In this document: positions 46,847 through 60,017 of the stretch, one piece after another | Layout: every line of letters begins with the position of its first letter | Numbering within the stretch: position 1 is the first letter of the stretch | NCBI RefSeq assembly: GCF_003001935.1 | Contig: NZ_PVNG01000007.1 | Coordinates: 1-64,000, forward strand | DNA length: 64,000 nucleotides | DNA from: Nonomuraea fuscirosea | Lineage (GTDB): Bacteria; Actinomycetota; Actinomycetes; Streptosporangiales; Streptosporangiaceae | Direction: 5' to 3' | The notes under the pieces: model-generated | Told to the model about the DNA's origin: nothing | The model's database searches: none | What the model saw: only the letters and a program-made list of their open reading frames with translations | Made by a program: the position numbers and the translations under genes

Positions 46847-49744
46847 TCAGCGGCGGTGACGGAAGGCGTCGGCGGCGGACCGGTCGATGATCGCCAGCTG
46901 GGTGTGGATCTGATCGGTGGCGGCGGAGTCGCGGTCGCCGAGCAGCGTGTGGGCGTGACGCCAGTGCTCGTGGGCGGCCGGGTGGTCGCCGGCGAGGTGA
47001 TGACAGGCGCCCAGGTGGGCGAGGGTGCTGGCCTCGGCGTACGGGTCGCCGAACTCGCGGAACAGACCCAGGGCACGGCGGTAGCAGGGGACGGCCCCGG
47101 CCGGGTCGCCCAGCTGGAGCCGGGTGTCGGCCAGGCACGACCAGGTGTGGGCCTCATGGGGGCGGTTGCCCAGCCGCTGGTGCAGGAGCAGGGCCCGCTC
47201 GCACAATTCCAGGGCCCGGGCGTGCTGCCCCAGGCGGCCGTGGTGGAAGCCGAGATCGGTGAGCGCGATGGCCCGGCCCGCCTGGTGGTCCAGCCGCTCG
47301 AACAGGTCGTGGGCGCGCCGGGCGGCGTCGAGCGCGTCGGCCTGCCTGCCCTGGAGGGCGTACACGATGTCGCGGTGGTAGTGCGTCCACGCCTGACCGG
47401 CGAGGTCGTCACGCGCTCGGTGCAGGGCGGCGTCGAGGTTGCGGTGGGCGTCGCCGAAGCGGCCCAGGTCGGCCAGCGCGAAGGCCAGGTTGCGGTACGC
47501 GCGGGACTCCTCCACCGGGTCGCCCAGCCGCGCGGCGGCGGCCACGGCGGCCTGCTGGGTCTCGGCCCGGTCGTGCCAGAAGCCCTGTCCGTGCAGGAAG
47601 ACGAACATCGCCCGCGCCAGGTGGCAGACCTGCCGGTCCAGGCCCAGGTCTGCGGCCGGCTCCAGGACGGCGAGCAGGGCGGGGCGCTCGGCCGCGAACC
47701 AGGCCGCCGCCGCGTCCCGTCCACCCAGGTCGGTGACACACACGCCCGTCGCCGGCGCGGCGGCGCCGACGGTCTCGACGTCCTCCTGCGCTCCTCCCTC
47801 CGTGTCCCCTTCCGCGTCGCCGCCGAGCAACCGATGGGCGGTGTACGCGGTACGGGCGTAGTGGTCGATGAGGCGGCGCCGCGCGGCGTCCCGGTCCGCG
47901 TCGTGGGCCTGGCAGAGCTCGGAGGCGTAGGCGCGCAGCAGATCGTGGCAGGACCAGCGGCCGGGAACGGGTTCGGTGAGCAGGTTGGCGCGGGTCAGTT
48001 CGGCGAGGGGCGCCCGTACCTCGGAGATCGGAAGGCCCGCCAGGCTGGCGGCGGCGGCGGTCGTGCTGTCCGGGCCCGGATGCAGCCCGGCGACCAGCCG
48101 GAACAGCCGTGCCGCCGGGTCGCCGAGCGAGTCGTACGACCACGAGAAGATCGCCCGTACGCCGGCGACGCGGTCCAAGGCCCCGAGGGTGTCCCGGAGC
48201 TCGGTGGCGAGCGCGTCGAGCGGGTGCGCGGGGTGGATCGCGGCGCGGGCGGCGACGATCGCGAGCGCCAGCGGCAGCCCGGCGCAGCGGCGGACGATCT
48301 CCTCGACGGCGTCAGGTCGGGCGGTGATCCGCTCCTGGCCGAGCCGGGCGGACAGCAGCCGCCTCGCCTCGTCCGGCGGCAGCAGGCCGAGGGGGAGCGG
48401 ACGCGCGCCGTACGTCATGACCAGCTCGGTGAGGTGATCGCGGCTGGTGACCAGCACCAGGCAGCCGGGCGCCCCGGGGAGCAGCGGGGTGACCTGGCCG
48501 GCGTCGCGGGCGTTGTCCAGCAGGACCAGCATGCGCCGTCCGGCCAGCAGGCTGCGGTAGAGACCGGCCTGCGCGTCCAGGCCGTCCGGGATCCGGTGCG
48601 GCGGCACCTCCAGCGCGTCCAGTAACGCGCGGACAGCCGTCGCCGGTCGTACCGCCTCCCCAGAGGGGTCGTATCCGCGCAGATCGACATGGAGCCGGCC
48701 GTCCGGGAACCGGTCGGCGACCCGGTGTGCCCAGTGCACCGCGAGCGTGGTCTTCCCGATCCCCGCCGGGCCGGAGATGACCGTGATCGACGGCGCCGGG
48801 GACCGTGTCTCCTCCGGCGACCCGAGCAGCGCGTCCAGCGCCGCCAGCTCGGCCTCCCGCCCGGCGAACCCGACGACGGCGGCGGGTAACTGACTGGGCA
48901 CCGTGCTCCCGGCCCCCGAGGCGTCGGCGGCGGGCAGTCGACTGGGTACCTTGCGCCCGTCCACCGGGGCGCCTGCGGCGGGCGTTGGGTCGGCCATCGT
49001 GCGCCTGGCTGCCGGGGCGCCTGCGGTGAGCAGGTCGGCATGGACCTGCCGCAGCTCGGGGCTGGGGTCCACGCCCAGTTCGGCGGCGAGCCGGCGCCGG
49101 ATCGTCTCGTACCGCTCCAGCGCCTCGGCGGGACGGCCGGACGACTCCAGCACCCGCAGCAGCCGCGCCCACAACGATTCGCGCAGCGGATGCCGGTCGG
49201 CGGCCCTGGCCAGCGGGTCCGGGTCCGGCCGCGTTCCGTGGGCCAGGTCCAGATCGACCCGGCGCTCCAGCGCGCTCAGGTACCGATCGTGCAGCGCGGG
49301 GGCCGCGAAGTGCTCCAGCCAGTCCGATCGGATCCCGTCGAAGGGGGCGCCGCGCCACAGCGCCAGCGCCTCGGCCAGCCGGGACCGCTCGGCCGCCGGA
49401 TCGGATGCCGCCGCGGCCTCGTCGATCAGATGGCCGAAGCGCAGCGCGTCCACCTGATCGGGCTCGGCCGCCAGCAGGTAGCCGCCCGGCCGGGCCGCGA
49501 TCAGTTCGGCGGTGCCCAGCGCGCGGCGTACGCGCTTGACGGTGGTACGGAGATTGGCCCGCGGGTCGCCGCGCGGATCGGCGCCCCACACCGCGCTCAC
49601 CAGTCTTTCCGCCGGTACGGCCCGGCCCACCGACATCGCCAGCACCGCCAGCAACGCGCGCTGCCGCCCCGGGGGCAGCTCGACCGGCAGCCCGGACACG
49701 GAAACGCGCAGCGGCCCCAGCAGCTCGACGGCCAGCACGCGCAT
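46847..49744 (-). CDS. AfsR/SARP-type regulator with NB-ARC and TPR domains
   Basis: A 965-aa protein: an OmpR-type wHTH (about 1-95), a BTAD bacterial activator domain (about 96-240), an NB-ARC/STAND ATPase (Walker A GPAGIGKTTLAVHW near 320, Walker B MLVLLDNARDA) and C-terminal TPR repeats (about 680-950). The architecture is that of AfsR, a pleiotropic activator of secondary metabolism. ATG 49744 has AGGAG at a proper distance; GTG 49747 is too close. No biosynthetic cluster is adjacent, so its targets are elsewhere or it is global. Confidence 0.9.
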   Translation of the reverse strand: MRVLAVELLGPLRVSVSGLPVELPPGRQRALLAVLAMSVGRAVPAERLVSAVWGADPRGDPRANLRTTVKRVRRALGTAELIAARPGGYLLAAEPDQVDALRFGHLIDEAAAASDPAAERSRLAEALALWRGAPFDGIRSDWLEHFAAPALHDRYLSALERRVDLDLAHGTRPDPDPLARAADRHPLRESLWARLLRVLESSGRPAEALERYETIRRRLAAELGVDPSPELRQVHADLLTAGAPAARRTMADPTPAAGAPVDGRKVPSRLPAADASGAGSTVPSQLPAAVVGFAGREAELAALDALLGSPEETRSPAPSITVISGPAGIGKTTLAVHWAHRVADRFPDGRLHVDLRGYDPSGEAVRPATAVRALLDALEVPPHRIPDGLDAQAGLYRSLLAGRRMLVLLDNARDAGQVTPLLPGAPGCLVLVTSRDHLTELVMTYGARPLPLGLLPPDEARRLLSARLGQERITARPDAVEEIVRRCAGLPLALAIVAARAAIHPAHPLDALATELRDTLGALDRVAGVRAIFSWSYDSLGDPAARLFRLVAGLHPGPDSTTAAAASLAGLPISEVRAPLAELTRANLLTEPVPGRWSCHDLLRAYASELCQAHDADRDAARRRLIDHYARTAYTAHRLLGGDAEGDTEGGAQEDVETVGAAAPATGVCVTDLGGRDAAAAWFAAERPALLAVLEPAADLGLDRQVCHLARAMFVFLHGQGFWHDRAETQQAAVAAAARLGDPVEESRAYRNLAFALADLGRFGDAHRNLDAALHRARDDLAGQAWTHYHRDIVYALQGRQADALDAARRAHDLFERLDHQAGRAIALTDLGFHHGRLGQHARALELCERALLLHQRLGNRPHEAHTWSCLADTRLQLGDPAGAVPCYRRALGLFREFGDPYAEASTLAHLGACHHLAGDHPAAHEHWRHAHTLLGDRDSAATDQIHTQLAIIDRSAADAFRHRR

Positions 49745-49881
49745 CACTCTCCTTCACACGCCCGGTCCAAAGGTGAGTGTCACTGGGCTGACACCACTCT
49801 GTCACCCCGGGTCCGCCACGATGGCGATCGCGCGAGCGTGATCCACCGGGAGATCCCGGATCGAGACCGCAGGAGGTCACA

Positions 49882-54693: not shown

Positions 54694-55452
54694 ATGGACC
54701 TCGGACTGCACGGACGCGTCGCGCTGGTCACGGGGGCGTCGGGCGACATCGGCGGCGCCATCGCGATGACCTTGGCACAGGAGGGAGCCTCGGTCGCCGT
54801 CACCTGGTACAGCGGCGAAGAACGGGCCCACGGCCTCGTCGGCACGATCACGGCGGCGGGCGGCAGGGCGATCGCGGTCCGGCTCGACCAGCGTGACCGG
54901 GAGTCGATCCGGGCGGCCGTCCGTCAGGTGGAGCAGGAGCTGGGCGGCATCGCGGTCCTGGTCGCCAACGCCGTCTCCTGGCCGGCCCGGGCCCCCGAGA
55001 CCTGGGAGAGCCTGACCGGCGACTTCACCGCGAACGTGACCGGGACGCTGACCGTGATCGACGCCGCGCTGCCCGGCATGCGGGCGGCCGGTTGGGGCCG
55101 CGTGGTCGTGCTCTCGTCGGACGTGGTCGCCCAGCCCATGCCGGCCGGAGTGGCGTATCCGGCCGCGAAGGGCGCGCTGGAGACGGCCGCGAGGGTGTAC
55201 GCATCCCGTGAGGCCCCGTACGGCATCCTCACCAACGTCGTCAGACCAGGATTCACCCTCACCGAACGGGCACTGAACACTCCGGGCTTCGGGCAGGAGG
55301 TCGTCGACGCCGAGGCCGCCATGACACCCACCCGCCGCATCTGCACCCCCGAGGACGTCGCCTCCACCGTCGCCTATCTCGGCTCGGCCGCGAACGGGCA
55401 CGTCAACGGAGAGATCGTCTCCGTCGCGGGCGGACGCCACCTCACCCGGTGA
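54694..55452 (+). CDS. short-chain dehydrogenase/reductase
   Basis: A 252-aa SDR. The cofactor motif is TGASGDIGGAIA (about residues 13-24), followed by NAV in place of the usual NAG, the catalytic Ser (VVVLSSDVV), Tyr (GVAYPAAKGALE with YxxxK) and C-terminal GG loop (AGGRH). A classical SDR, probably FabG-like, with unknown substrate. ATG 54694 follows GGAGGAGAG; an upstream ATG would overlap the operator. Probably repressed by the adjacent MarR. Confidence 0.93.
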   Translation: MDLGLHGRVALVTGASGDIGGAIAMTLAQEGASVAVTWYSGEERAHGLVGTITAAGGRAIAVRLDQRDRESIRAAVRQVEQELGGIAVLVANAVSWPARAPETWESLTGDFTANVTGTLTVIDAALPGMRAAGWGRVVVLSSDVVAQPMPAGVAYPAAKGALETAARVYASREAPYGILTNVVRPGFTLTERALNTPGFGQEVVDAEAAMTPTRRICTPEDVASTVAYLGSAANGHVNGEIVSVAGGRHLTR

Positions 55453-55655
55453 CCGCCGGCACCGTAACGGTGCTCGTCTTCAGGTTCCCGGCCGGGCGCC
55501 AGGGGGTGTCCACGCTCCCGGTAGCACCCATGGCCGCGACCATCGGGACCGCCGGCATCATGCTCGTCCTCGGCGCCTGCGCCGTCGCGTACACGATCGG
55601 CTGGTCGGTCGTCGTGCCGGTGACCAGCCCGCCGAGGGGCGCGGGGCCCAGCTGA
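55449..55655 (+). CDS. small hypothetical membrane protein
   Basis: A 68-aa product of uncertain reality. GTG 55449 overlaps the SDR stop by 4 bp. One hydrophobic segment (about 30-58, ATIGTAGIMLVLGACAVAYTIGWSVVVPV) is flanked by basic residues. It may be a small membrane protein co-translated with the SDR or a chance open frame. Confidence 0.3.
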   Translation: MTAGTVTVLVFRFPAGRQGVSTLPVAPMAATIGTAGIMLVLGACAVAYTIGWSVVVPVTSPPRGAGPS

Positions 55656-55675
55656 CGGGCCGGTCCCGTTCATCC

Positions 55676-55849
55676 CTACGGGCAGGCGGGCGTGAGCACC
55701 TTCCAGGGCGAGCAGTTGTCGGCGGAGGACGAGCAGCACAGCCGCCTGCTCCACCCGCCCGAGCGGCACTGGTACTGGTATCCGCACACGGCCGCCGCCT
55801 TCACCTCGGGAAGTACCAGCGCCAGAGCCCGGTCGATGAGCGTTCTCAC
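55676..55849 (-). CDS. Cys-rich small peptide with leader-like N-terminus
   Basis: A 57-aa product. The first 20 residues (VRTLIDRALALVLPEVKAAA) form an amphipathic leader-like segment; the last 37 have six Cys (VCGYQYQCRSGGWSRRLCC, then SSSADNC and PAC). The GTG at 55849 follows GGAGG at 7 nt, which supports translation; the longer frame from 55864 overlaps that site. Similar actinobacterial peptides exist but have no assigned function that I know. It could be a disulfide-rich secreted peptide or a RiPP precursor. The transglutaminase-like gene is 98 bp beyond its 5' end on the same strand. Confidence 0.6.
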   Translation of the reverse strand: MRTLIDRALALVLPEVKAAAVCGYQYQCRSGGWSRRLCCSSSADNCSPWKVLTPACP

Positions 55850-55947
55850 GTTCTGCCTCCTCATATCCCTTTACCGACTGACGTATCGGCGATTATCGGG
55901 ACGGGCACTGGCGGGCCGTTAGCGCGGCGATAGCGCGGTCAGCAAGG

Positions 55948-56640
55948 TCAGGCCGCCCGGCGGCGCATGACCAGATCCGCGGGGACGCGCACGGGCGCGC
56001 ACAGGGTCTGGCCGTGCTCGTCGAACAGGTCGTCGCGGGAGTCGAAGAAGCCCAGGTCGGCGCGGACGTGACCGGAGAGGTCGCAGGCGGGGCAGGTGGC
56101 GCCGTCCCAGTCCACGGCGGTGCGCGCGACCGCGTCGAAGAGCGTCTCCCCGGCCGTGTTCGTGAACCGGCCTCCTGCTCGCAGGGCGTCGAGGTCGCCG
56201 TACAGCTCGGAGACGGACACCCACCGGTCGCCGAGGAGGAACTCCGGCCAGGCGAGGATCACGTGCCGGGGGATCAGCACGCGCAGCCGGGGGAGGCGCG
56301 CATGCCAGAAACGCCCGTCGAGCAGCAGACCCCTCACCCGCGTGGGGATCCCGCGACCCCGGGCCAGGCCCTCCAGCAGAGCCAGTCGCTGACTGCAGGA
56401 CCCCTGACCCAGCCGCAGGGTCGTGGAGACGGGACGCCGTTCGTTCATCGCGTAGACCGGGCGGACGCGGGCCGCGACGAGCCGGTGGGCCGCGATCAGG
56501 AACGCCCGCCCGTCGAGGTCCCGTGCTTCGTCCAGCAACTCCAGCACCCGAGGATGCCGCCAGTCGAGGATGGGCGTGGCCGCTGTGCCGCCCGTGGCGG
56601 TCGGGCGACGCTGCGGCGATCGTAAGCGTCCGAAGATCAC
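55948..56640 (-). CDS. transglutaminase-like protein
   Basis: A 230-aa protein. GQGSCSQRLALLEGLARGRGIPTRVRGLLLDG carries the putative nucleophile Cys and the following helix of the transglutaminase-like fold, and RHVILAWPEFLLGDRWVSVSELYG supplies the His; an Asp would follow. A CPAC zinc-knuckle-like pair lies near the C-terminus (about 200). GTG 56640 is the best start, though without a strong ribosome site. It may act as a cysteine protease or acyltransferase; no partner is obvious except the upstream-oriented Cys-rich peptide. Confidence 0.7.
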   Translation of the reverse strand: MIFGRLRSPQRRPTATGGTAATPILDWRHPRVLELLDEARDLDGRAFLIAAHRLVAARVRPVYAMNERRPVSTTLRLGQGSCSQRLALLEGLARGRGIPTRVRGLLLDGRFWHARLPRLRVLIPRHVILAWPEFLLGDRWVSVSELYGDLDALRAGGRFTNTAGETLFDAVARTAVDWDGATCPACDLSGHVRADLGFFDSRDDLFDEHGQTLCAPVRVPADLVMRRRAA

Positions 56641-56684
56641 CCGGCGATCGTAACCATCGGGGGATGGACGCTGGTCGGCGTCGG

Positions 56685-59600
56685 TTACTTGAAGGTCAGG
56701 GTCTGCCAGGTTTTCACCTCGTCGGCGGAGAGGGCTCTGGCGAGGATGGCGGCTCGGTCCACGGCGCCGGTCAGGCGTTGGCCGCCGTTCTGGTCGGCGG
56801 CGAAGCGCAGGGGGCGGGCGGTGCAGCCGGTGATGCCGTCGGTGCCGGTCTGGGCGGTGGCCCTGAGTTCGCCGTCCACGTACGCGGTGAGCGTGCCGGT
56901 GCGGTCGAGGGTGACCACCACGTCGATCCAGCGGCCGGTCGGCAGGGTGGCGTTCAACGCGGTGTTGGCGCCGGCGCCGATGAAGCGCAGCGTGTTGTCC
57001 GGGGTGACGTCGATGAGCACGCCGTCGGTGCCGGGGTCGCCGGACACCTGCGAGTCGAACAGGCGGCGGTAACCGGAGCCGGCGATCTTGACCTCGGCCG
57101 CGAACGTGGCCTCCCGGACCAGGCCGAGGGTGGTCGCGCCCGTCGTCAGGTAGGTGTCGCCGTCGAGGACGAGGCCGCTGCCGGTGGGTGCGGTGGGGTC
57201 GTAGGCGGGGGTGCCGGTGACGGTGGCGTCGCGGCTGTTGCCGGAGGTGTCGGCGACGGTGCCGCCCTCCTGCGGGTCCCAGGCGACCAGAAGAGAGCCG
57301 GGTTCGGGCGGCGGGCAGGGGTCGAGCCCGAGTACGGCGGTCGCCGAGCCCCGCCACGACCCGGTGACCGAGCCGGTGAGCACGGCGCGTCGGGAGCCGT
57401 CCGCCGGGCCGGGGGTGACGGTGAAGACGGCGGTGCGCGTGCGGCCGGGGCCGGTGGCGGGCAGGTGGCGGGTGGCCGGCTCGACGGTCCAGCCCGCGGG
57501 CGCGGTGAGGGCGACGTCGGCGGCCGGTACGGCGCGCCGCCGGGTGGCGGTCACCGTGACCCGCGCCTCGAACGGTGTGCCCGGCACGGCCGTGGCGGGC
57601 GCCTCCAGGGCGATGGCGGCCTCGTTCTGGATGGTGTACGCCTGACCGGCGCGGGCGTTCCAGATGAGGGTGTCGCCGTCGCGGCGCGGCTCGACCACGC
57701 GGCCCCGCTCGTCCAGGACGCGGTAACGGCCGGCGATGAACGGCGACCGGACCTTGAGCGGGCCGGACCTGCCGGGCCGTACGGTGACGGTGTCGGCCGC
57801 GCCGCCCTTCCAGGTGGCGTCCACGGTGACGTTCCCGCGGGCGCGCAGCCCGGTCACGGAGCCGTTCTTCCAGGTGGAGGGCAGGGCGGGCAGGACGTGG
57901 ACGACGTCGTGCTGACTCTGCACGAGCATCTCGGCCATCCCCGAGGTGGCCCCGAAGTTGCCGTCGATCTGGAACGGCGGATGGGTGTCCCAGAGGTTGT
58001 CCAGGGTGGAGCTCTTGAGCTGCTCGGCGAGCATCTTGTGGGCGTGGTCGCCGTCCAGCAGCCGCGCCCAGAAGTTGATCTTCCACGCCTTGGACCAGCC
58101 GGTGCCGCCGTCGCCGCGCGCGGTCAGCGTGACCTTGGCCGCCTCGGCCTCCGGCGTGCCCGCGGCGATCTGGTTGGCCGGGTGCAGGGCGTACAGGTGG
58201 GAGACGTGCCGGTGGGTGTCGGACCTTGCGTCCCAGTCGCTCTTCCACTCCTGCAGCTGGCCCCACGAGCCGACGCGCAGGCCGGGGTCGAGCTTGGCCA
58301 GGGCGGCGCGCACCTCGGCGCGGAAGCCGGCGTCCACGTTCAGCTTGTCGGCCGTGGCCAGGGCGTTGGTGAGCACCTCGCGGACGATCTGCTGCGACAT
58401 CGACGCGCCGGCCGAGAAGTCGCCGTGCTCGGGGGAGTAGCTGGGCGAGGCGACCAGCCTGCCGTCACGCGGGTCGGTGTGCAGGAAGTCGAGCCAGAAC
58501 TCCGCCGCGCCCTTGATCACCGGGTACGCGGTGTCGCGCAGATAGCCGGTGTCGCCGGTGAAGCGGTAGCTGTCGTACAGGTGCTGGGTGGTCCAGGCGG
58601 CGGCCTCGGGGAACCAGAAGGCGGTGGCCCAGTCGTGCATGCCGGTGAACCCGTAGGGGTTGGTCTCGTTGTTGACCACCCAGCCGCGCGCGCCGTACAA
58701 GTCCCGCGCAGTCTTGCGGCCTGGGGCGACCAGGGCGGAGATGTAGCGGTCGTACGGAGTGGTCGTCTCGTGCAGGTTGGTCTGCTCGGCGAGCCAGTAG
58801 TTCATCTGCAGGTTGATGTTGACGTGGTAGTCGGCCGACCAGGGCGGGCTGGTGGAGTGGTTCCAGACGCCCTGGAGGTTGGCCGGCAGCAGGTCGTTCT
58901 CACGGGAGGAGGAGATGAGCAGGTAGCGGCCGTAGGCGAAGAACAGCTCCTCCAGCGCCCGGTCCTCGCCGGCGGCGCCGCCGGTGTAGTCCTCGCGCAG
59001 CCGGTCGGTGGGGACGGCGGGCGTCGTGCCGCCGAGGTCCAGCTTCACCCGGTCGAACAGCTCGCGGTAGTCGGCGGTGTGCGCCCGGCGCAGCTGCTCG
59101 TAGCTCCTGGACGCGGCGGCGTCCACGGCCGCGGTGACCTTGGCGTGCGGGTCCGCGCCCCGGTAGGCCGGGTAGGCGCCGGCGTAGTCGGTGCCGGCCG
59201 ACAGCACGAACACGGCGCTGTCGGCGCCGGTGACGGTGATCTCGTCCCCCGCGTCCGTACGGGTGCCGCCCTGCGCGATCACCTGCACCTGCGCCTCGAA
59301 CCGCAGCTGGTTGTCGCTGAGCCGCCCGCGGATGGTGAGCCGGCCGCCGGCGGCGGTGACCGTCTTGTCGTCGCGCGGCGAGCTGTGGCGCAGCGTGAAC
59401 GACACTTTGCCGGGCCGGTCGGCCGACAGCCGGCCGACGATCACGTTGCCCGGGTTGCTGGCGAAGTACTCGCGCGAGTAGCGGACGCCGCCCGCGGTGT
59501 AGCCGACCCGGGCCACGGCCTCGCGCAGGCTCAGCTCGCGCCGGTAGGCGGAGGCGTCGGCGGGCGCGCCGGGAAGATCGAGATGCAGGTCGCCGAACGT

Positions 59601-60017
59601 CTGGTACGCCCCGAAGCCCGTCTTGGGCTGGCCCAGTTTGGCGGCGACGTCCTCGGGGCTCATCCGGCCGTCGCGGTCGATCTGGCGCCGCACGTCATCG
59701 ATGGCGCCGGGGCGCGGCGTCCTCCAGTTGCCGAAGTCGTAGCCGGGGGAGCCGGGGCCGCCGGTCCACAACGTCTTCTCGTTGAACTGGATCCGCTCGG
59801 ACCCGACCCCACCGAAGATCATCGCACCCAGCGGGCCGTTGCCGATGGGCAGCGCCTGGGTCTCCCAGTCGGTGGCGGGCTGGTCGTACCAGAGGGCCAA
59901 GTCATCGGGTGTCTGGCGGTCGTCGGCGACGGCCGGGGCGGAGGCGGGCAGACCGGTGGCGAGCAGCAGCGCGGCGAGCAGGACGGAGTCGAGGCGGCGT
60001 CGTGGGGGGTGGGCCAC
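56685..60017 (-). CDS. secreted GH95 glycosidase (alpha-L-fucosidase type) with LamG domain
   Basis: A 1110-aa protein. A signal peptide (about 1-31, ending APAVA) is followed by the GH95 N-terminal beta domain (ALPIGNGPLGAMIFGGVGSERIQFNEKTLWTGGP) and the (alpha/alpha)6 barrel (YHVNINLQMNYWLAEQTN, GMHDWATAFWFPEAAAWTTQHLYDSYRFTGD, QIDGNFGATSGMAEML), where the Asn/Asp/Glu residues that catalyse inverting fucosidase reactions lie. A beta-sandwich part and a C-terminal LamG domain (about 905-1105) complete it. It probably cleaves terminal alpha-L-fucose or galactose from plant polysaccharides such as xyloglucan. Confidence 0.9.
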   Translation of the reverse strand: MAHPPRRRLDSVLLAALLLATGLPASAPAVADDRQTPDDLALWYDQPATDWETQALPIGNGPLGAMIFGGVGSERIQFNEKTLWTGGPGSPGYDFGNWRTPRPGAIDDVRRQIDRDGRMSPEDVAAKLGQPKTGFGAYQTFGDLHLDLPGAPADASAYRRELSLREAVARVGYTAGGVRYSREYFASNPGNVIVGRLSADRPGKVSFTLRHSSPRDDKTVTAAGGRLTIRGRLSDNQLRFEAQVQVIAQGGTRTDAGDEITVTGADSAVFVLSAGTDYAGAYPAYRGADPHAKVTAAVDAAASRSYEQLRRAHTADYRELFDRVKLDLGGTTPAVPTDRLREDYTGGAAGEDRALEELFFAYGRYLLISSSRENDLLPANLQGVWNHSTSPPWSADYHVNINLQMNYWLAEQTNLHETTTPYDRYISALVAPGRKTARDLYGARGWVVNNETNPYGFTGMHDWATAFWFPEAAAWTTQHLYDSYRFTGDTGYLRDTAYPVIKGAAEFWLDFLHTDPRDGRLVASPSYSPEHGDFSAGASMSQQIVREVLTNALATADKLNVDAGFRAEVRAALAKLDPGLRVGSWGQLQEWKSDWDARSDTHRHVSHLYALHPANQIAAGTPEAEAAKVTLTARGDGGTGWSKAWKINFWARLLDGDHAHKMLAEQLKSSTLDNLWDTHPPFQIDGNFGATSGMAEMLVQSQHDVVHVLPALPSTWKNGSVTGLRARGNVTVDATWKGGAADTVTVRPGRSGPLKVRSPFIAGRYRVLDERGRVVEPRRDGDTLIWNARAGQAYTIQNEAAIALEAPATAVPGTPFEARVTVTATRRRAVPAADVALTAPAGWTVEPATRHLPATGPGRTRTAVFTVTPGPADGSRRAVLTGSVTGSWRGSATAVLGLDPCPPPEPGSLLVAWDPQEGGTVADTSGNSRDATVTGTPAYDPTAPTGSGLVLDGDTYLTTGATTLGLVREATFAAEVKIAGSGYRRLFDSQVSGDPGTDGVLIDVTPDNTLRFIGAGANTALNATLPTGRWIDVVVTLDRTGTLTAYVDGELRATAQTGTDGITGCTARPLRFAADQNGGQRLTGAVDRAAILARALSADEVKTWQTLTFK

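What the first reader, a model, noticed from the sequence alone, without database searches (positions are those of the whole stretch)
55676..56640. Cys-rich peptide with leader-like segment beside a transglutaminase-like protein
A 57-aa product with six Cys in its last 37 residues, a leader-like N-terminus and a strong ribosome site, lying downstream of a gene for a transglutaminase/cysteine-protease-like protein on the same strand. Small Cys-rich peptides of this form are widespread in actinomycetes but undescribed; the neighbour could process or modify it.
Basis: inference. Interest (0 to 1): 0.6.

Follow-up and report, generated by a model that had tools for sequence, protein, structure and literature searches.

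The report
Lone member of exported disulfide-rich peptide family
A small gene in a soil actinomycete encodes a short leader followed by a cysteine-rich core, and most of the relatives examined sit beside genes for an exporter, a leader-cutting protease and disulfide-making proteins, which points to a large, little-described arsenal of secreted, disulfide-stabilised peptides.

Summary
The gene is real: a 57-aa GTG-start product (55676-55849, minus), six Cys, all after a leader ending in A-x-A, with an AGGAGG site. It belongs to a hypervariable peptide family: 127 of 341 genomes of its taxonomic family hold a match at E<=1e-3; closest named orthologues are Nonomuraea. 117 distinct relatives share the leader xxLxDRxLxxxVPxxxAxA; the core varies except for Cys, and 114 of 117 have an even Cys number. 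In 80 loci (window included), a MauD-like thioredoxin lies within 8 kb of the peptide in 64, a dedicated ABC exporter in 59, an S26 signal peptidase in 58, MauE in 46; all four in 37; none in 11. The window peptide is one of those 11: a solo precursor with its own conserved upstream block. The transglutaminase-like neighbour is incidental: absent from 102 fetched peptide or cassette stretches. Best reading: ABC export, S26 cut after AxA, MauE/MauD oxidation, in trans for the solo copies; product probably bacteriocin-like or a signal. Function of the mature peptide is untested. Nearest print found: three predicted MauE candidate RiPP families of Streptomyces (PMC7794033).

The parts
55676..55849 (-). 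57-aa precursor peptide gene, GTG start at 55849; leader residues 1-20, core residues 21-57 with six Cys
   Evidence: family consensus and AxA at the leader end
55856..55861 (-). AGGAGG ribosome binding site
   Evidence: the same or nearly the same in the solo orthologues
55891..55897 (-). GATAATC, conserved -10-like element (inferred)
   Evidence: conserved or nearly so in solo orthologues; the sigma-70 consensus scan found no site
55917..55938 (-). two direct repeats CCGCGCTATCG / CCGCGCTAACG, 11-bp period, SARP-operator-like (inferred)
   Evidence: the only GCGCTA-N5-GCGCTA in the own genome (the pattern read backwards, a control, occurs twice)
55948..56640 (-). transglutaminase-like protein (PF01841), neighbour, judged not part of the system

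Best explanation
The gene encodes a solo precursor of a secreted disulfide-rich mini-protein. Shown by sequence: a leader with conserved L-x-D-R-x-L...P...A-x-A and no Cys, a variable core with, nearly always, an even number of Cys, and, for most relatives examined, an adjacent cassette of ABC exporter, S26 signal peptidase, MauD-like thioredoxin and MauE. Inferred: the leader guides the reduced precursor to the ABC exporter (the one scanned has no C39 peptidase domain); the S26 enzyme cuts after A-x-A on the outer face; MauE and MauD oxidise the six Cys to three disulfides; the folded peptide is released. The window copy has no cassette beside it and would be made in trans by one of the three cassette-type exporters elsewhere in its genome, from its own promoter. 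The role of the product (bacteriocin-like weapon first, signal or inhibitor second) is a guess from fast core change, tandem copies and SARP-type regulators near many relatives.
For: 80 loci, window included, gathered by peptide similarity (three are own-genome paralogues): MauD 64, ABC 59, S26 58, MauE 46 within 8 kb; all four in 37, two or more in 66, one in 3, none in 11. With a second peptide profile, slightly lower thresholds and the whole fetched stretch: 64, 60, 58, 51; none in 10; median gap to the nearest cassette gene 90 bp, same strand in 66 of 70. The 59 loci not used to build the cassette profiles: MauD 51, S26 47, ABC 46, MauE 42, none in 4. MauE occurs 323 times in 579 Mb of 53 genus genomes, so about 0.9% of 16-kb stretches should hold one. 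Nine further loci that I chose: all four genes in 9 of 9, at still lower thresholds; a tenth stretch in that batch, L222, a weak hit without a leader, had none. Reverse direction: of 10 stretches chosen through the ABC gene alone, 8 hold a family peptide, one of these weak and partial (15 bits); three more stretches of that batch were already peptide hits. Even Cys count in 114 of 117; Cys within the first 19 matched residues in 1 of 117; A at -3 in 61 of 69 and at -1 in 69 of 69 nonredundant peptides. Catalytic motifs: S[MT]xP in 71 of 72 S26 hits, CxxC in 78 of 79 MauD, CxCF in 58 of 65 MauE. Pfam names from two to three members of each (ABC one). All 7 genomes carrying a solo copy or its ortholog hold cassette-type ABC genes, the own genome three. 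An ABC at least 70% identical to that of L068, where a window-like peptide sits inside a cassette, is in 4 of 5 solo-carrying genus genomes and 5 of 47 others. Model: leader disordered (pLDDT about 45), core a small beta sheet at pLDDT 77-86.
Against: The window genome is the exception in the last test: its nearest cassette ABC is only 63% identical, so the exporter of this very peptide is uncertain. A strict pattern of mine for the S26 lysine region matched only 33 of 72. MauE is missing near the peptide in 34 of 80 loci. No mass, activity or transcript is known. Core dN is about equal to dS (short sequences, large error). The neighbour clustering showed no conserved candidate immunity gene (top 22 clusters), which is weak evidence against a bacteriocin. 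One of three solo copies in a Streptosporangium genome (L153) has lost its frame after the second Cys. Loci are related by descent, so the counts are not independent.
Confidence: 0.66

Rival explanations
1. The transglutaminase-like protein processes or crosslinks the peptide.
For: Adjacent on the same strand; PF01841 domain with a Cys in GSC.
Against: No peptide near its five closest relatives and no shared synteny beyond the gene; not in any of 102 fetched peptide or cassette stretches; the peptide has its own conserved upstream block that starts about at the transglutaminase stop codon.
Confidence: 0.04
2. The solo peptide is a relic: a precursor that lost its cassette and is no longer matured in this strain.
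For: No cassette gene in the fetched 20 kb around it; the best matching exporter type is missing from the own genome; a decayed solo copy exists elsewhere (L153).
Against: Open frame, ribosome site, upstream block and all six Cys are kept across six species or strains; three other cassette-type exporters are in the genome.
Confidence: 0.2
3. The peptides are intracellular or membrane redox or metal proteins, or small subunits matured as in methylamine dehydrogenase, not secreted effectors.
For: MauE and MauD are known for maturing a Cys-rich subunit (PMC7794033, section 7 read).
Against: Hypervariable cores, tandem arrays, an ABC exporter and an S26 peptidase in the same cassette; no Pfam match to such a subunit among 36 members.
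Confidence: 0.1

Closest known systems
decRiPPter MauE/MauD candidate RiPP families of Streptomyces (PMC7794033; section 7 and passages read)
   Same: Cys-rich predicted precursor next to mauE, in one family also mauD, in clusters filtered for transporter, peptidase and regulator; actinobacteria
   Different: Those precursors have at least 8 Cys and were left as predictions; whether they share this leader could not be tested; the window gene has 6 Cys and no cassette beside it
Actifensins, defensin-like bacteriocins of Actinomyces (PMC6989792; passages read)
   Same: Leader plus 37-aa core, six Cys, ABC genes, several copies per genome, some without the operon
   Different: Cys spacing C-X5-12-C-X3-C-X9-10-C-X4-5-C-X-C, GA cut motif, subtilisin-like protease and LuxR-type regulator; no MauE or S26 in the passages read
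TMcin (PMC13252029; outline and first part of Results read)
   Same: Leader removed by a membrane protease, disulfide made by a cluster-encoded oxidoreductase, ABC release
   Different: Single disulfide, transmembrane helix in precursor and product, S2P-type protease, DsbA-type enzyme
Methylamine dehydrogenase maturation by MauE/MauD (as told in PMC7794033)
   Same: MauE and MauD-type redox proteins for a Cys-rich substrate
   Different: Here the substrate is a small hypervariable peptide with an ABC exporter and S26 peptidase; other mau genes were not searched for

Membership tests
decRiPPter MauE candidate families | mauE (in one family also mauD) in the precursor's gene cluster | tested here: not met
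   Not at the window locus; for the wider peptide family MauE is near 46 and MauD near 64 of 80 loci
decRiPPter MauE candidate families | precursor with at least 8 Cys | tested here: not met
   Window peptide has 6; 21 of 117 relatives have 8 or 10
decRiPPter MauE candidate families | same precursor sequence family | not testable with these tools
Actifensin / defensin-like bacteriocins | Cys spacing C-X5-12-C-X3-C-X9-10-C-X4-5-C-X-C | tested here: not met
   Window C-x5-C-x9-CC-x6-C-x9-C; spacing from PMC6989792
Actifensin / defensin-like bacteriocins | antimicrobial activity | not testable with these tools
   needs an assay
C39-type (double-glycine) ABC bacteriocins | double-glycine-type cut site and C39 peptidase domain on the exporter (definition recalled) | tested here: not met
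   Leader ends A-x-A; no peptidase domain in the one ABC protein scanned
RiPP in general (leader plus enzyme-modified core) | conserved leader, variable core, cluster-encoded modifying enzymes | tested here: inconclusive
   Leader columns conserved and core mostly not; redox proteins in the cassettes of most relatives but not beside the window gene; modification itself not tested
A known Pfam or NCBIfam family | profile match | tested here: not met
   36 family members: no NCBIfam match; two single Pfam matches, CBM_14 (5e-4) and Defensin_RK-1 (6e-3), one member each

The most novel reading that the evidence does not exclude
A separate export-and-folding route of actinomycetes: one ABC exporter, a free-standing S26 signal peptidase and a MauE/MauD relay serve a hypervariable set of disulfide-rich mini-proteins through a shared A-x-A leader, and dispersed solo precursors such as the window gene, switched on by SARP-type regulators, feed the same machinery in trans, giving each strain a modular arsenal.
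Probability: 0.35. Interest if true: 0.78.

Novelty: new variant of a known kind. Interest (0 to 1): 0.62.

Why it matters
The shared leader gives a handle to find many disulfide-rich peptides that have no family model, names the proteins likely to make them, and shows that precursors can sit far from the likely machinery, where cluster-based mining would overlook them. If the leader really addresses any core to the exporter, the system would also be a means to make disulfide-rich peptides in Gram-positive hosts.

Tried and rejected
Transglutaminase as partner: rejected. Plasmid collection with one relative's peptide: no match. PHROGs: nothing for the peptide. Solved structures with the family profile: none. 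Fold search: best PDB match E 2.0, no Z of 2 or more among 63 chains, so the predicted core names no relative. Rfam on 55400-56700: none. Sigma-70 and terminator scan of 55450-56000: none. The 11-bp repeat idea: 8 of 8 solo upstream regions against about 1 of 8 in shuffles, but these eight are homologous; for 110 other peptides 32 against 13.6, with periods 9, 15 and 21 raised too, so it is weak outside the solo clade. The repeat pattern occurs once in the own genome, its backward control twice, so no shared regulon was found. Phylum-wide search with the first profile: 8 of 396 genomes, the own included; the seven others weak (E 1.7e-4 to 7e-3), and the best of them (L222) was fetched and judged chance. 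Some weak hits (L012, L014) are not family members on reading. One search read some loci on the wrong strand for the peptide; redone. One duplicate stretch (L133, overlapping L080) was left out of the counts. The cassette profiles were built from 4 to 6 members within the first 20 loci; one search counts the 59 others apart. One search failed in its transglutaminase search (file missing) and was redone.

Full report
Observation. The peptide, its six Cys, its ribosome site and the neighbouring transglutaminase-like gene are as described. The start is the GTG at 55849; most close orthologues keep a GTG there, two have ATG.

Family. The first search gave matches in 15 of 54 genus genomes at E<=0.01, a few of them spurious; a 13-row profile matched in 127 of 341 genomes of the taxonomic family, and a 36-row profile in 20 of 394 genomes drawn across the class, three of them outside the taxonomic family. 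Pfam and NCBIfam hold no family for it, apart from two single weak Pfam matches among 36 members.

Anatomy. In 69 nonredundant peptides the leader columns L4, D6, R7, L9, P14, A18 and A20 stand out (D6 67 of 69, A18 61, A20 69) and the core keeps little but Cys, one R and some G. Of 117 distinct peptides 85 have six Cys, 20 eight, 7 four, one ten, one two, and three an odd number. The first profile was trained on 13 relatives with mostly six Cys, so the figure six is biased; the even counts of the others are less so. AlphaFold2 with six sequences leaves the leader unfolded and gives the core strands 22-29, 32-39 and 50-53.

Cassette. Neighbour clustering, Pfam and profile mapping show an ABC exporter, a MauD-like thioredoxin, MauE (PF07291) and an S26 signal peptidase (PF10502) beside most relatives fetched. 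Counts: MauD 64, ABC 59, S26 58, MauE 46 of 80 loci within 8 kb; 11 have none. Those figures include the loci the cassette profiles came from; the 59 others give 51, 46, 47 and 42, with none in 4. The chance of a MauE in a 16-kb stretch is about 0.9%. The five transglutaminase loci, a small control, have none of the four. Nine further loci taken have all four each; a tenth stretch, L222, has none and its hit lacks the leader. From the other side, 8 of 10 stretches chosen through the ABC gene alone hold a family peptide, one weakly. Motifs: S[MT]xP in 71 of 72 S26 hits, CxxC in 78 of 79 MauD, CxCF in 58 of 65 MauE; a strict pattern for the S26 lysine region fitted 33 of 72. SARP-type (BTAD) regulators, found by clustering, lie within 1 kb of a peptide in 29 of 91 loci; seven proteins, the window's own at 46847-49747 among them, were scanned and all carry PF03704; the own genome has 51 such hits in 12.2 Mb.

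The window copy. It and its closest relatives L064-L067, L069, L101 and L153 have no cassette gene within 8 kb. They share about 100 bp upstream and the gene; the window's wider flanks match none of them, while L064, L065 and L069 share up to about 470 bp. The block holds direct repeats of 11 bp and a GATAATC-like element; the classical SARP site is an 11-bp unit of heptamer plus four-base spacer (PMC5930380, passages read), so SARP control is a fair guess, no more. dN/dS is lower in the leader than in the core in 5 of 6 pairs (the sixth has no silent change in the leader), and core dN is near dS; the sequences are short. In one relative, L068, a window-like peptide sits inside a full cassette; exporters of that type (70% identity or more) are in 4 of 5 solo-carrying genus genomes and 5 of 47 others, L068's own genome set aside, uncorrected for kinship (one-sided p 0.002), and in the Streptosporangium (87%). 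The window genome lacks it; its best is 63%, on contig C3.

Mechanism. Leader-guided ABC export, a cut after A-x-A by S26 and oxidation by MauE/MauD fit all parts; each step is inferred from protein family membership. For the window copy these acts would be in trans.

Known work. Nine answered searches of the held papers, eight of them on such peptides or cassettes, gave one match of substance: PMC7794033, which lists three Streptomyces candidate families with mauE, one also with mauD, and precursors of at least 8 Cys. In those listings and passages I saw no report of the A-x-A leader family, the S26 partner or solo precursors; most subscription papers and all supplements were out of reach.

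Noticed in passing
L078 8588-14456: Seven different family peptides in tandem around one cassette; L074 has three. Suggests diversification by duplication.
   Followed up: partly
L153 around 8263 (relative of the Streptosporangium genome G711): A solo copy whose frame leaves the family after its second Cys, in a genome with two intact solo copies.
   Followed up: partly
window 46847-49747: AfsR/SARP-type regulator with BTAD, NB-ARC and TPR domains, about 6 kb from the peptide; a link is not shown.
   Followed up: partly
window 56685-60017: Glycoside hydrolase family 95 protein with a Laminin_G_3 domain, next to the transglutaminase-like gene.
   Followed up: no
L173 and L174 (own genome C10 and C18): MauE genes without the other three cassette genes or a family peptide in the 16 kb fetched.
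   Followed up: no
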